Of a stretch of DNA of 5,591 nucleotides, positions 1-5,591 are shown one piece after another. The notes under the pieces were generated by a model. That model did no database searches. It was not told the origin of the DNA and was given only the letters and a program-made list of their open reading frames with translations. The stretch comes from Deltaproteobacteria bacterium. Lineage in GTDB: Bacteria; Bdellovibrionota_F; JAHFAK01. Position 1 is the stretch's first letter, and every line of letters starts with the position of its first letter. The DNA is taken from positions 1 through 5,591 of the forward strand of contig JAHFAK010000128.1 in assembly GCA_023250585.1 (NCBI GenBank), read 5' to 3'. Made by a program: the position numbers and the translations under genes.

Positions 1-437
1 TTTTTTGAAACTTCTATAATGCTTTTTTTCGTTCCTTCAATTTCAAGAAATGATCCGATTTGCGGCAGGGTATCAATACAAATTTTTGTTTTTTTATACA
101 TGTAGAATTCTCGAATTTTTTCTTTCCCTCCGCTCACCTTAAAACCTAAAGCCTCTAAACATTGTTTTGCTTTTTGAAAATCACTTACCTTAACTTCTAT
201 TTCTTCTCTGATCTTAAAATATTTTGATTTTCTTGTTTTTTCCTTGATACTTAGAATTCCTGCAGTATCTATTTTTCTAAGCCGACATAGAATTTCATTT
301 TTTAAAAGTCGTTGCTCATAGGTATCAAAATAGATATCAACTTCTTTTTTCTTGGAAACTTTTATTGCTCTGATAATTTTGAGCGTATGTCTTACAATGT
401 TTGCATCAAGTATTTTAAATTTTATTTCAATTTCCAT
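1..437 (-). CDS. CYTH-domain protein (CyaB / class IV adenylate cyclase-like), 3' end cut by window
   Basis: The reading frame runs from an ATG at 437 to the window edge without a stop (145 complete codons), so the C-terminus is missing. The protein begins MEIEIKFKI, the ExExK signature of the CYTH superfamily (class IV adenylate cyclases, thiamine- and inorganic-triphosphatases). Further family landmarks follow in order: YFDT (36-39), RLR (52-54), SIKEK (63-67), REEIEV (77-82), LEALGF (94-99), R109/Y112, ID-LPQIG (121-128) and LEIEG (131-135). These alternating acidic and basic residues line the CYTH tunnel that binds triphosphate and divalent metal. The LPQIGSFLEIEG ending is typical of CyaB-type members, usually about 170-180 residues, so roughly 30 residues are probably missing. 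Substrate (ATP to cAMP, or a triphosphate hydrolysed) cannot be told from sequence. No Shine-Dalgarno precedes the ATG; see the promoter at 444-471. It lies 21 nt after the stop of the upstream TSP3 gene on the same strand. Confidence 0.88.
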   Translation of the reverse strand, partial: MEIEIKFKILDANIVRHTLKIIRAIKVSKKKEVDIYFDTYEQRLLKNEILCRLRKIDTAGILSIKEKTRKSKYFKIREEIEVKVSDFQKAKQCLEALGFKVSGGKEKIREFYMYKKTKICIDTLPQIGSFLEIEGTKKSIIEVSK

Positions 438-443
438 GCAAAG

Positions 444-471
444 ATTATAGCAAGTACATTAAAAGTCACAA
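444..471 (-). promoter_or_regulatory. Promoter for the CYTH gene, predicted leaderless
   Basis: On the minus strand there is a perfect -10 box TATAAT (444-449) with an extended TGC in front (450-452), and a -35-like TTGTGA (466-471, 4 of 6 matches) at 16-bp spacing. Only six bases separate the -10 box from the ATG, so the expected transcription start falls on or next to the A of the start codon. No ribosome-binding sequence is present. The -35 half lies inside the last codons of the upstream TSP3 gene. Confidence 0.6.
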
Positions 472-1958
472 GCATCTCCAATTTTATCGCCATCAGAATC
501 TTTTTGATCTGCATTTGGAACTAGTGGACAATTATCATTTACATTAGTTTTTCCATCTCCATCCATATCATTATCACTACTATTTACTTTGCCATCTCCA
601 TCTATGTCATTATCACAGTAGTTACCCTTTCCATCGTTATCTGTATCTTCTTGTTTAGGATTAGGAGTATCGGGACAATTATCGACATTACCACAAATGT
701 TGTCTCCATCACTATCATTTTGAGCATCATGGATACATGTATCACAACTATTGCCCATACCATCGTTATCATCGTCCTTCTGATCAGCATTAGAAACAGT
801 AGGACAATTATCAGATTCATCAGGGACTCCATCACCATCGGCATCTGTCAATGAATCTTCACAAGGATCTGGATCATCTGGACAGATATCACATACATCG
901 CCAACTTTATCACCATCTTTATCGCTTTGATCGCTATTTGATGCTTGAGGACAGTTGTCATTTGTATCAGGAACTCCATCCCCATCAGCATCATTCTCTT
1001 CTGGATTACACGTATCATTAGGATCTTGCGGGCAAGAGTCACAAACATCTCCTCGCTTATCTCCGTCTGAATCTTTCTGGTCAGTATTTGCTATGCTTAC
1101 GCAATTGTCACACACATCTCCTACTTTATCGCTATCAGAATCTTTTTGATCGGCATTTGCTGTATTAACACAATTATCAGCATTATTAGTAATTCCATCT
1201 TTATCAGAATCAAGGCTGCTGTCACATGCATCGCCAACTCCATTGCCATTCGTATCAGCTTGATCGGGATTAGCAGTGTCAGGACAGTTATCTAAATCGC
1301 CACAAATGTTATCGCCATCGCTATCATTTTGAGCATCATGGATACATCCATCACACATATCGCCTTTTTTATCTCCATCAGCATCTTCTTGGCCTGAATT
1401 AGCAGCGTTCTGACAGTTATCACTGCCATCGGGAACTCCATCACCATCACTGTCAGAGGTTGACGAAGGGGGATTTTCAGTGACAGGAACTTGCAGAAGC
1501 ATTTTTACCGGCACATCGGTATTGTCTGCAACATCTACAGCAATATCTTCGCTTTTGTATAAGAGTTTTCCATCAATATTATAAAGCTCTCCATGTCCTG
1601 CATAATGCCCCGATGATCCATCTATACGATGATAATCAACTCCGTCCGTGGCAAAATTTTCATTTTTTTCTAATGTATCAGTAACGACTTCATCGCTTGA
1701 GATGTCATTCTGAGTGAACGTGTACATTACTTTTAATCCAACGACATTATTTCGTTCTTGGGTATTATCGTAAGAAATCTTGAGAAGAATTTCGTGTTCA
1801 GCATCTTCTTGAGGTTGTCCTACTTGACCTTCGTCTGTATCTCCGCAAATAAATCCGAATGAAAGAATTACAATAATAAAAGCAAGGATAATAAGAAAAA
1901 CAAAAAACCATCCTTTTTTTCCTAAAAATGGAATACCATCATCTTTGAGCACGATCAT
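459..1958 (-). CDS. Membrane-anchored thrombospondin type 3 repeat protein, 499 aa
   Basis: Predicted surface protein with a calcium-binding stalk. Residues 1-16 form a short tail with lysines, about 17-37 form one transmembrane helix, and the helix ends in LSFGFICG (32-39), a motif shared with both upstream genes. Residues about 57-150 form a domain shared with the other two paralogs (ISYDNTQER, then LLYKSED and ADNTD). A Pro/Ser linker (161-168) leads to about eight TSP3 units (169-498) built on DxDxDGxxD-xxDNCP-xxxNxDQxDxDxDG-xGDxCD, where aspartates bind calcium and cysteines pair. The protein ends directly in GDACDF, with no C-terminal anchor or cap. The ATG at 1958 is supported by GAGGAGG (1964-1970) five bases upstream. 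It is the third gene of a same-strand cluster, 55 nt after the 148-aa gene. TSP3 stalks occur in OmpA-like and other bacterial surface proteins, but no such partner domain is visible here. Exact function is unknown. Confidence 0.9.
   Translation of the reverse strand: MIVLKDDGIPFLGKKGWFFVFLIILAFIIVILSFGFICGDTDEGQVGQPQEDAEHEILLKISYDNTQERNNVVGLKVMYTFTQNDISSDEVVTDTLEKNENFATDGVDYHRIDGSSGHYAGHGELYNIDGKLLYKSEDIAVDVADNTDVPVKMLLQVPVTENPPSSTSDSDGDGVPDGSDNCQNAANSGQEDADGDKKGDMCDGCIHDAQNDSDGDNICGDLDNCPDTANPDQADTNGNGVGDACDSSLDSDKDGITNNADNCVNTANADQKDSDSDKVGDVCDNCVSIANTDQKDSDGDKRGDVCDSCPQDPNDTCNPEENDADGDGVPDTNDNCPQASNSDQSDKDGDKVGDVCDICPDDPDPCEDSLTDADGDGVPDESDNCPTVSNADQKDDDNDGMGNSCDTCIHDAQNDSDGDNICGNVDNCPDTPNPKQEDTDNDGKGNYCDNDIDGDGKVNSSDNDMDGDGKTNVNDNCPLVPNADQKDSDGDKIGDACDF
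712..738 (-). repeat. Intragenic 27-nt exact repeat, copy 2 (paired with 1321-1347)
   Basis: Identical over 27 nt to 1321-1347, exactly 609 nt (203 codons) away and in the same frame. It encodes CIHDAQNDS at residues 408-416. The protein similarity extends further, through DGDNICG-x-x-DNCPDT, but there the DNA has diverged. Confidence 0.85.
1321..1347 (-). repeat. Intragenic 27-nt exact repeat, copy 1 (paired with 712-738)
   Basis: This is the N-terminal copy of the same 27-nt block, encoding CIHDAQNDS at residues 205-213 of the TSP3 protein. Other repeat units in this gene do not share such a long exact match, so a two-unit or larger segment was probably duplicated more recently than the rest of the array. 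Confidence 0.85.
1842..1873 (-). repeat. 32-nt exact repeat encoding the VILSFGFICG anchor (paired with 3829-3860)
   Basis: These 32 bases in the 499-aa gene are identical to 3829-3860 in the 487-aa gene. They encode VILSFGFICG at the outer end of the transmembrane helix. The DNA on either side has diverged, although the proteins remain related. Confidence 0.85.
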
Positions 1959-2013
1959 ATCTTCCTCCTCCGTGTTTAATCGCTTAAATAATAGTGTATG
2001 AGTTTGTGGAACT

Positions 2014-2460
2014 TTATCCTTGATTACGTAGTTCCATTAAAAACTCTAGTGTTGTAGGTTCAAAAACACCTACCCATACTATTTCACTCTCATACAAAAG
2101 ATTTAAACTTTTATTTAATACAACAAGTTTTAAGTTATACTCACCGCTCGGTAGTTGGGTTATAATGGAGCTAAAGCTTTCATTCACACCAACATACAAT
2201 GTTTCATTACCTTGCTCATTCACGTTGAGATCATAATAGATAGCTTTCAGTTCATACCCTGCCGCACTTTGTAGAGGAACATCATAGGTAAGATTGACCG
2301 TAACGAGCATTTTATCGGCAGTCATTAGAAAGCTGTCCGTTTTGCCTACGTGATCGTCACTCCCACACAAAAAACCAAATGAAAAAATAACGCACCCACA
2401 TGCAATAGTTATGAGACTCAATAAGATGTAGCTGCGCACGTTTAAATATTTTTTACTCAT
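2014..2460 (-). CDS. Small membrane-anchored paralog lacking TSP3 repeats, 148 aa
   Basis: Unknown function. The protein has a basic N-terminal tail (MSKKYLNVRS), one transmembrane helix (about 11-31) ending in FSFGFLCG (26-33), and one extracytoplasmic domain (about 50-140). That domain follows the pattern of the two TSP3 proteins beside it: NLTYD (56-60), a Y-rich strand (KAIYYDLNV), SGEYNLKL (105-112), LLYESE (121-126), then a final strand. It stops where the others enter their linker and TSP3 stalk, so it is a stalk-less member of the same family rather than a frameshifted copy; I see no TSP3 remnant downstream. The three lysine/arginine residues before the helix suggest N-in, C-out topology. 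The start is supported by AGGAGG (2465-2470) four bases before the ATG. It begins 15 nt after the 487-aa gene and ends 55 nt before the 499-aa gene, so co-transcription is likely. Confidence 0.85.
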   Translation of the reverse strand: MSKKYLNVRSYILLSLITIACGCVIFSFGFLCGSDDHVGKTDSFLMTADKMLVTVNLTYDVPLQSAAGYELKAIYYDLNVNEQGNETLYVGVNESFSSIITQLPSGEYNLKLVVLNKSLNLLYESEIVWVGVFEPTTLEFLMELRNQG

Positions 2461-2475
2461 ATATCCTCCTGCCCT

Positions 2476-3939
2476 TTATTGTCGCTGTAACTCCTGAAAA
2501 ATCTTAAACGTATATTTGTATGAAGCACTTTCTTTTTTGTATGAATCACTTTCTTTATCGCCATCAATGACCTTCTCTACTGTAATATTTTTTGTATATT
2601 CCTTTGGAATCATTACTGGTGAGAAGAAAACAATCGCGGTATCTTTCCAGCTCTGAATGCACGCCGTTGAATCATTTGCCCCACAAATGGTCGAAATTTC
2701 TTTATCACCAAAAATAATTTTCGAACCTTGTAATCCCTCAGTTAAATTACAAAAATTTATTCCGCTCATTTCTACTTTCACTCGGAGAGCGTAATATTCT
2801 TTACCCAAAGCAACAGAGGAAATGGCCATTGTTTTAGTATGGTTAGGACATATATCACATATATCTCCAAGGCCATCTTTATCAGAATCTTTCTGATCTT
2901 CATTTGCCTGGCTCGGGCAATTATCACAGCTATCTCCAGTAAAATCAGAATCTTTATCTGCCTGATCGTTATTTGAAATATAATCACAATCATCGCACGC
3001 ATCACCAAACTGATCGCCATCGCTATTTTTTTGATCTTTATTTGCTGTATTAGGGCAGTTATCGCAGGCATCGCCAATTGAATCCCCATCTTGATCTTGC
3101 TGGTTTTCATTTCCTACTAACGGACAATTATCCGAATCATTACGATAGCCATCTCCATCAGAGTCAACAGCTTCACACGCGTCTCCTATGCCATCTCCAT
3201 CATCATATCCATTACTATCACTTTGATCAGCATTAGAAATTGATGAACAATTATCGCAGGCATCGCCGATGCCATCTTCATCACTATCAGTTTGATCAGC
3301 ATTCGCTAGATTTGGGCAATCATCTACGTCATCTGTTATACTATCTTGATCTGTGTCAGGTTTTTCTTCTGGAATGGTTTGCTCTTTACTTTCTGATACG
3401 TCTTCCGATGAGCTTTCGGCTGACGCTCCATTTGAATTCTCATTTTCGTTGTTGTTGAGCGCAAGCATAGAAACAGGGATGATTACGGCGTCAGTGTTAT
3501 CAGCAGAAACCTCAAAAGAAACCGACTTTTCTATTCGATACAACAATTCATTCTCTTCTCCATAGAGTTCAAGAAGCTTTACAGCATAGCTGCCGGGAGG
3601 AAAATTAAGATAAATGACATCATATCCTGCTTCCTCGAATTCAGGATTAATATAGAAATCTTCCTTATCTACGGTGAATGTATCTTGAGCACCACGTGCA
3701 TCAATATAATTAACATGTAGAGTATAGAAGAAAGCTTTTAAACGTTCTGTAGAATTATCATAAGAAAGATGTAATTCAATTACTTCCGGTGTTTTATCAT
3801 AAAGGACTTTGAGAAAAATTGTGTTTGTTCCGCAAATAAATCCGAATGAAAGAATTACAAAGAAAAAAGCGAGAAGAATTAAAATGAGATGACTATAAAT
3901 TGTCCTCTCATAATTTTTAAGCGTTTGTTGAATATCCAT
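2476..3939 (-). CDS. Membrane-anchored TSP3 repeat protein with C-terminal IPT/TIG-like domain, 487 aa
   Basis: First gene of the three-gene cluster. Order of parts: cytoplasmic tail (1-15); transmembrane helix (about 16-35) ending in LSFGFICG (30-37); the shared family domain (about 52-160, with LSYDNSTER, PPGSYAVKL, ELLYRIEKS and ADNTD); a low-complexity Asn/Ser/Glu linker (161-194); about six TSP3 units (195-362); and a C-terminal domain (about 366-478). The last domain has SGINF, GSKIIFGDKEI, SWKDTAIVFFSP and a closing YKYTF, the strand pattern of IPT/TIG immunoglobulin-like domains, plus cysteines at 397, 419 and 427 that may form a disulfide. One TSP3 unit (230-256) carries an extra NGYDD-type insertion. 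The ATG at 3939 follows a moderate Shine-Dalgarno, TAGGAAG (3942-3948). A surface adhesion or scaffolding role is inferred from the domains. The TSP3 and anchor calls are firm, the IPT call moderate. Confidence 0.9.
   Translation of the reverse strand: MDIQQTLKNYERTIYSHLILILLAFFFVILSFGFICGTNTIFLKVLYDKTPEVIELHLSYDNSTERLKAFFYTLHVNYIDARGAQDTFTVDKEDFYINPEFEEAGYDVIYLNFPPGSYAVKLLELYGEENELLYRIEKSVSFEVSADNTDAVIIPVSMLALNNNENENSNGASAESSSEDVSESKEQTIPEEKPDTDQDSITDDVDDCPNLANADQTDSDEDGIGDACDNCSSISNADQSDSNGYDDGDGIGDACEAVDSDGDGYRNDSDNCPLVGNENQQDQDGDSIGDACDNCPNTANKDQKNSDGDQFGDACDDCDYISNNDQADKDSDFTGDSCDNCPSQANEDQKDSDKDGLGDICDICPNHTKTMAISSVALGKEYYALRVKVEMSGINFCNLTEGLQGSKIIFGDKEISTICGANDSTACIQSWKDTAIVFFSPVMIPKEYTKNITVEKVIDGDKESDSYKKESASYKYTFKIFQELQRQ
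2506..2844 (-). other. IPT/TIG-like C-terminal domain of the 487-aa protein
   Basis: This segment encodes residues about 366-478. IPT/TIG domains typically read G-x-NF, then a V-x-FG strand turn, then W-S-D-T-x-I-x-V-x-x-P, then a final strand ending in (Y/F)xY/F. Here one sees SGINF (392-396), IIFGDKEI (408-415), WKDTAIVFFSP (431-441), NITVEKV (451-457) and SYKYTF (473-478). Three cysteines (397, 419, 427) are not part of the usual pattern. The assignment is from motif reading only. Confidence 0.55.
2854..3357 (-). repeat. TSP3 repeat array of the 487-aa protein (about 6 units)
   Basis: This segment encodes residues 195-362. Units end in GDACD, GDACE, GDACD, GDACD, GDSCD and GDICD. Most are the short 23-residue form NCPxxxNxDQxDSDxDxxGDxCD. 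It is about half the length of the array in the 499-aa protein, so the stalks would differ in length. Confidence 0.88.
3829..3860 (-). repeat. 32-nt exact repeat encoding the VILSFGFICG anchor (paired with 1842-1873)
   Basis: This is the partner of 1842-1873, lying in the 487-aa gene. In the 148-aa gene between them the same motif (SFGFLCG) is written with different codons, so the motif is kept at protein level there. Confidence 0.85.
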
Positions 3940-4947: not shown

Positions 4948-5591
4948 ATGGAAGTACTTACTGATTTTCCAAAACTTTATTGTCCATTTATTCGTAAAAC
5001 ATTCAAAGTTAATAAAGAAGATTGGAAAAAATACGGACACGAATATCAGCTCAGAACTCCCGAAGTATATTTGGTATTGAACAAAATTACTCCAGGATTT
5101 GAATGGGTGTTTGAAGAAAAAGATACGCAAGCAATTGAAAAACTGAATGGCACCAATATTAAATTGAAAACAGAAAAAGGAAGACTGATAGCATTTCAGA
5201 ATAGAAAAAATGTCATTGATCCTCTACAGATCATCCATGGGAGAACTCATTTAATTGAAGGGGTATTCAGAGCAATTGGAAAAGAGTATGTTAAAGGTGA
5301 TGGTGAACAAGCCGGAGAGCTTATGGGCCCAAAACTTCAGGGCAATCCTTATAAGCTTGATTTTCATGTGTGGTATCCATTTGAACGAGCGCGCGATTTT
5401 TTGATCTATAAATCATTTCATGAGCATGAACGGACATTTGATAATTTCAGTTCGTGGTTTAAAGATTTTTTGCGCAGTAGATTCTATATGAAAGAACATA
5501 AATGTCCTCTTGAAGAATCGGTCTTTGCCGAAGGCGTTGTCTTTTATAATAAACGTCTCCAAGAAGCTGAAAAAACCTATCAAGCAAAACT
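4948..5591 (+). CDS. RNA ligase-family (covalent nucleotidyltransferase) protein, 3' end cut by window
   Basis: The frame is open from ATG 4948 to the window end (214 codons, C-terminus missing). The start follows AAGGA (4937-4941) by six bases. The sequence shows the motifs of ATP-dependent RNA ligases in order. Motif I is EKLNGTN (64-70), with K65 the expected AMP-accepting lysine, followed by FQNRKNVI (83-90) with R86. A motif III-like GELMGPKLQGNPY lies at 123-135, FHVWYPF at 139-145, and motif IV EGVVF at 195-199. Motif V (K-x-K) should lie just past the end. Members of this superfamily adenylylate themselves, pass AMP to a 5'-phosphate RNA end and seal nicks, so RNA repair or end-joining is the likely role. 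The AEGVVFYNK spelling and the roughly 60-residue N-terminal extension before motif I do not let me assign it to Rnl1, Rnl2 or another subfamily. It is divergent from rplU; the next gene is out of view. Confidence 0.8.
   Translation, partial: MEVLTDFPKLYCPFIRKTFKVNKEDWKKYGHEYQLRTPEVYLVLNKITPGFEWVFEEKDTQAIEKLNGTNIKLKTEKGRLIAFQNRKNVIDPLQIIHGRTHLIEGVFRAIGKEYVKGDGEQAGELMGPKLQGNPYKLDFHVWYPFERARDFLIYKSFHEHERTFDNFSSWFKDFLRSRFYMKEHKCPLEESVFAEGVVFYNKRLQEAEKTYQAK

What the first reader, a model, noticed from the sequence alone, without database searches (positions are those of the whole stretch)
459..3939. Modular three-gene surface-protein cluster: no stalk, stalk, stalk plus cap
All three share anchor and membrane-proximal domain (Y-D/S-Y-D strand, SG-x-Y, LLY-x-x-E, ADNTD). 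One stops there, one adds about 8 TSP3 units, one adds about 6 TSP3 units plus a C-terminal globular domain. Co-directional with gaps of 15 and 55 nt, they could form a single surface assembly with calcium-stiffened arms of different length. The shared domain matches no family I recognise.
Basis: partly seen in the sequence, partly recalled or inferred. Interest (0 to 1): 0.65.

Follow-up and report, generated by a model that had tools for sequence, protein, structure and literature searches.

The report
Tandem envelope proteins sharing unusual anchor
Three neighbouring genes of an uncultured bacterium encode sister proteins that probably sit in the cell envelope (one bare, one with a calcium-binding stalk, one with a stalk plus a cap), and their membrane anchor turns out to be a recurring tag on about 17 otherwise mostly unrelated exported proteins of the same genome.

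Summary
Three minus-strand genes (487, 148 and 499 aa; gaps 15 and 55 nt) share an N-terminal anchor and a roughly 110-aa membrane-proximal domain. Two carry TSP3 (thrombospondin type 3) stalks with 8 and 6 repeat units. The proximal domain matches no Pfam family, is modelled as a generic Ig/transthyretin-like beta-sandwich (pLDDT 71), and was found nowhere else: not elsewhere in this genome, in the one class-mate, or convincingly in about 384 other genomes. The trio is best read as a lineage-specific tandem duplication with swapped distal modules. Nothing tested supports a joint complex.

The anchor is not specific to the trio. The motif (basic residues, ~20 hydrophobic residues, S-[FL]-G-x(1-3)-C-[GS], acidic linker) heads 17 proteins of this genome. 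They include a subtilase, a Kelch propeller, an FG-GAP protein and 12 TSP3 proteins, in about nine head families. Leave-group-out profiles recover all 17 at E <= 5e-8. The class-mate and about 384 other genomes lack it. It has no canonical lipobox. The organism is diderm, so the position (periplasm or surface) is open. Most likely it is a lineage-specific N-terminal anchoring or sorting tag; its processing is inferred, not shown.

The parts
2476..3939 (-). C487: anchor, proximal beta-sandwich domain, Ser/Glu-rich linker, 6 TSP3 units, C-terminal cap without family match
3457..3828 (-). proximal domain of C487 (residues about 38-161)
   Evidence: alignment A3, AlphaFold pLDDT 70.9
2479..2850 (-). 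C-terminal cap of C487 (approximate limits)
   Evidence: no confident Pfam match; model pLDDT under 50
2014..2460 (-). B148: anchor plus proximal domain only
459..1958 (-). A499: anchor, proximal domain, 8 TSP3 units, ends inside the last repeat without a cap
3829..3939 (-). anchor of C487 (polar N-terminus, membrane segment, SFGFICG)
2365..2460 (-). anchor of B148 (SFGFLCG)
1842..1958 (-). anchor of A499 (SFGFICG)

Best explanation
A lineage-specific tandem duplication produced three paralogous envelope proteins. Each is exported and held by an N-terminal tag (basic residues inside, ~20-residue hydrophobic segment, S-F-G-x-x-C-G at the outer face, acidic linker). Directly outside the membrane lies a small Ig/transthyretin-like beta-sandwich. 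A499 and C487 then extend through calcium-binding, disulfide-paired TSP3 repeats acting as a semi-rigid spacer, and C487 ends in a cap that is the candidate binding part. The three differ in distal modules and probably act as separate envelope or adhesion proteins rather than subunits of one machine. The tag is a genome-wide anchoring or sorting signal shared by 17 proteins of this bacterium. Shown by computation: homology, repeats, genome-wide tag and its absence elsewhere in the sample. Inferred: membrane topology, calcium filling and stiffness, location, adhesion role, recognition of the tag by any machinery.
For: Paralogy. TSP3 repeats. Beta-sandwich model. Anchor profile: 17 proteins at E <= 3.3e-14, next hit 0.005. 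Leave-group-out profiles recover every held-out anchor at E <= 5e-8, with the best background ORF no better than 2e-6. The carriers' bodies fall into about nine families once TSP3 stretches are masked, including Subtilase, FG-GAP/cadherin-like, TTR-NHL and Kelch heads. Not in the class-mate; no convincing case in the other 385 genomes of the sample. The -1 residue before Cys is I, L, V, P, F or W in all 17, and the polar-to-Cys distance averages 22.6 residues, versus 13.8 for 12 TSP3 proteins of the same genome with lipobox-like signals.
Against: No experimental or topology-predictor evidence for membrane location or processing. Two further anchor-like N-termini lack the adjacent Cys (C30 ...LSFGVVDDSGGC, C124 ...LSFGFVISVHD), so Cys is less constant than S-F-G. 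The domain and anchor are known from one MAG only. A-B ectodomain similarity is weak by itself. The diderm envelope leaves surface exposure unproven.
Confidence: 0.55

Rival explanations
1. The three proteins form one hetero-oligomeric assembly through their shared proximal domains, with calcium-stiffened arms of different length.
For: Adjacent, co-directional genes with short gaps and a shared proximal domain.
Against: No second genome with the trio, so no conserved co-occurrence; tandem duplication explains the spacing; the anchor is shared with 14 unlinked proteins.
Confidence: 0.12
2. The tag is an unusual lipoprotein-type signal: the Cys is acylated (for example by Lgt) and the proteins are moved to the outer membrane or surface, functionally a mirror image of MYXO-CTERM.
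For: Cys at the outer end of the hydrophobic segment in all 17, mostly followed by G/GGG and acidic residues as in many lipoproteins; an Lgt gene is present; MYXO-CTERM uses an invariant Cys without a defined lipobox, in inverted topology (PMC11980579).
Against: No lipobox in any of the 17; hydrophobic stretch longer than in the genome's lipobox-like proteins; two related N-termini lack the adjacent Cys; no processing enzyme was searched for.
Confidence: 0.25
3. The tag is only an uncleaved inner-membrane signal anchor, so the trio is periplasmic and not on the surface; the motif is inherited from one ancestral anchor without a special role.
For: About 20 hydrophobic residues, basic inside and acidic outside, fits an N-in signal anchor; diderm envelope; a continuous helix is modelled through the anchor.
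Against: S, G and Cys are invariant while the hydrophobic residues vary freely across about nine head families, which suggests selection on the motif; the heads are types usual for extracellular proteins.
Confidence: 0.3

Closest known systems
MtsC/MstC-type TSP3 MYXO-CTERM cohesion protein (NCBIfam NF047638; PMC11980579 names an MstC involved in cohesion)
   Same: Long TSP3 array in an envelope protein; best NCBIfam match of A499 and C487
   Different: Below the family cut-off (215 and 135 of 350 bits); no C-terminal MYXO-CTERM tag; the anchor is N-terminal; no counterpart of the proximal domain identified
MYXO-CTERM / myxosortase sorting tag (PMC11980579)
   Same: Tag on dozens of adhesins and hydrolases in one genome, built from basic residues, a membrane helix and a Cys without a lipobox
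   Different: Here the order is reversed and N-terminal; no cognate protease tested; processing unknown
Bacterial lipoprotein signal peptide (Lgt/LspA substrates)
   Same: N-terminal basic, hydrophobic, Cys, Gly, acidic order; the same genome has 12 lipobox-like TSP3 proteins
   Different: No small residue at -1 in any of 17, longer hydrophobic segment
Transthyretin-like / Cna-B-like and FnIII beta-sandwich domains
   Same: Modelled as a beta-sandwich; Foldseek and VIA-align list FnIII, transthyretin and pilin domains
   Different: No sequence match; structural scores are at the generic level (Z <= 6.8)

Membership tests
TSP3 repeat proteins (Pfam PF02412) | TSP_3 profile above the curated cut-off | tested here: met
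   A499 162.9 bits, C487 84.5 bits, cut-off 25; B148 has none
MtsC (NCBIfam NF047638) | whole-protein score above 350 bits | tested here: not met
   214.8 and 135.1 bits
MtsC / MYXO-CTERM proteins | C-terminal Cys motif, transmembrane helix and Arg cluster | tested here: not met
   A499 ends GDACDF, B148 MELRNQG, C487 KIFQELQRQ; no C-terminal hydrophobic segment
Omp28-related selenoprotein (NF045500) | score above 200 bits | tested here: not met
   181.9 and 83.3 bits
Lipoprotein (LspA substrate) | lipobox with a small residue at -1 | tested here: not met
   -1 is I, L, V, P, F or W in all 17 anchors
Lipoprotein | acylated Cys | not testable with these tools
   needs mass spectrometry; Lgt gene present
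Transthyretin-like / Ig-like beta-sandwich domains | fold | tested here: inconclusive
   model pLDDT 70.9; best Foldseek E 0.011, Z <= 6.8; the full-length model's best hit, E 3.7e-4, is an LRR protein

The most novel reading that the evidence does not exclude
The S-[FL]-G-x(1-3)-C-[GS] anchor is a new N-terminal protein-sorting tag, recognised by dedicated machinery in this lineage, that directs about 17 adhesin-, stalk- and hydrolase-type proteins to one envelope location, as MYXO-CTERM does from the C-terminus.
Probability: 0.3. Interest if true: 0.7.

Novelty: new variant of a known kind. Interest (0 to 1): 0.42.

Why it matters
TSP3-stalk envelope proteins are known, but a genome-wide N-terminal anchor motif shared by mostly unrelated heads is the kind of signature by which sorting systems such as MYXO-CTERM are recognised. 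If the motif is a sorting tag, it defines the exported surface-type repertoire of a scarcely sampled phylum and gives a concrete motif with which to seek the cognate enzyme. The trio itself is a simple example of one proximal module carrying different distal parts.

Tried and rejected
Trio in relatives: only one other genome of the phylum is held; no hit for the proximal-domain profile there, and in 386 genomes searched only four others gave weak hits (E 0.004-0.007), taken as chance. Viral contigs and plasmids gave none. PHROGs none. PDB by sequence: nothing better than E 0.58. Relation of the proximal domain to the TTR-like domain of another anchor protein (C15, 712-aa frame): hhalign probability 0.3%, rejected as unsupported. 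The cap has no paralogue among the own-genome stretches fetched. The full-length model gives no usable stalk or cap (pLDDT under 50). The rplU scan of named genomes gave no close relative, so the phylum could not be named. No terminator-like sites; promoter-like sites no more than chance. No Rfam match.

Full report
What is there. The window is contig C60 of a 2.24-Mb, 164-contig genome (97% complete) whose phylum has only one other held genome, a class-mate. On the minus strand lie rplU and rpmA, then after 174 nt C487 (3939-2476), after 15 nt B148 (2460-2014), after 55 nt A499 (1958-459), and after 21 nt a CYTH/CyaB-type gene that runs off the contig. Each of the three has a purine-rich ribosome-binding site.

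Homology. The first 175 residues are related pairwise (E 3e-15, 2e-8, 1e-7). Without the membrane segment, A499-C487 is unambiguous, B148-C487 is moderate (4 of 1000 shuffles reach it), and A499-B148 is weak by itself. Invariant positions include the Y-D of the first strand, G-x-Y and LLY-x-x-E. ADNTD is shared only by A499 and C487.

Proximal domain. No confident Pfam match and no PDB relative by sequence. AlphaFold on the three-row alignment gives a mostly beta fold, read here as a beta-sandwich (pLDDT 70.9, pTM 0.62). Foldseek and VIA-align give generic Ig, FnIII, transthyretin and pilin-type neighbours without a standout. In the own genome it occurs only in the trio. The class-mate has none, and about 384 other genomes gave only marginal hits in four. 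It is therefore an orphan, lineage-specific domain on present data.

Anchor. Searching with the trio's N-termini hit other proteins of the genome mainly in the membrane segment and SFGFICG motif. TSP3-type frames in the fetched stretches number 27, about 25 genes, since two genes appear split across contig ends. Twelve TSP3 proteins begin with lipobox-like signals, and twelve, including A499 and C487, begin with the S-[FL]-G-x(1-3)-C-[GS] anchor. Five more anchor proteins have no TSP3 match: B148, a subtilase, a TTR-NHL protein, an FG-GAP/cadherin-like protein, and a protein without Pfam match. A profile of the anchors finds exactly 17 in the genome with a sharp drop (3e-14, then 0.005) and none in the class-mate. 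The weak hits in other genomes that I inspected lack the motif. Because the profile was built from selected members, I repeated it leaving out whole head families: all 17 are recovered at E 8e-17 to 5e-8, against a best background of 2e-6 from an ORF that is itself a Cys-less relative. After masking TSP3, the bodies form about nine families if the trio counts as one. The motif is therefore conserved across mostly unrelated heads, which argues for a function in targeting or anchoring.

What the anchor might do. It runs basic, hydrophobic (mean 22.6 residues from the last polar residue to Cys, against 13.8 in the lipobox set), S-x-G, Cys-Gly, acidic. No member has a small residue at -1. S-x-G also satisfies the -3/-1 rule of signal peptidase I (established knowledge), so cleavage is possible. 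Lgt is present and Omp85 indicates an outer membrane. The nearest functional analogy is the C-terminal MYXO-CTERM tag: an invariant Cys, a helix and Arg residues, no defined lipobox, inverted topology, processed by myxosortase and proposed to be moved by type II secretion (PMC11980579). This is an analogy only. Two anchor-like N-termini lack the adjacent Cys, so S-F-G may be the essential part.

Verdict. TSP3 abundance is also unusual: 134 matches here, and in a sample of 290 genomes its first-look candidate count (226, in 2.24 Mb) is exceeded only by G058 (246, in 5.0 Mb) among the listed genomes. The most interesting part is the genome-wide anchor, not the trio.

Noticed in passing
G000 contigs C60 (three), C62, C157, C72, C20, C15 (two), C93, C114, C56, C91, C102, C22, C75, C104: 17 proteins share an N-terminal S-[FL]-G-x(1-3)-C-[GS] anchor that is absent from the class-mate and not convincingly found in about 384 other genomes.
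   Followed up: yes
L187 about 2867 (C30) and L180 about 2769 (C124): Two anchor-like N-termini with S-F-G but no Cys directly after it.
   Followed up: partly
G000 whole genome: 134 TSP3 repeat matches in about 25 genes of a 2.24-Mb genome; about half of those genes with intact N-termini use lipobox-like signals, half the other anchor.
   Followed up: partly
C50 start / C128 end, and C161 end / C137 start (L157, L171, L179, L175): The same TSP3 repeat sequence appears at both contig ends of each pair, so two long TSP3 genes are apparently split by the assembly.
   Followed up: no
window 4948-5589, + strand: ORF with a sub-threshold match to Pfam RNA_ligase (E 0.0011, below cut-off), running off the contig.
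   Followed up: no
window 3-437, - strand: CYTH / class IV adenylate cyclase-type protein (cyaB, above the NCBIfam cut-off) 21 nt downstream of A499; a promoter-like site at 471-444 lies just upstream of it.
   Followed up: no
L177 (C75) and L178 (C104): Two anchor-TSP3 proteins 92% identical over about 320 residues: a recent duplication, or variant copies in the MAG.
   Followed up: no
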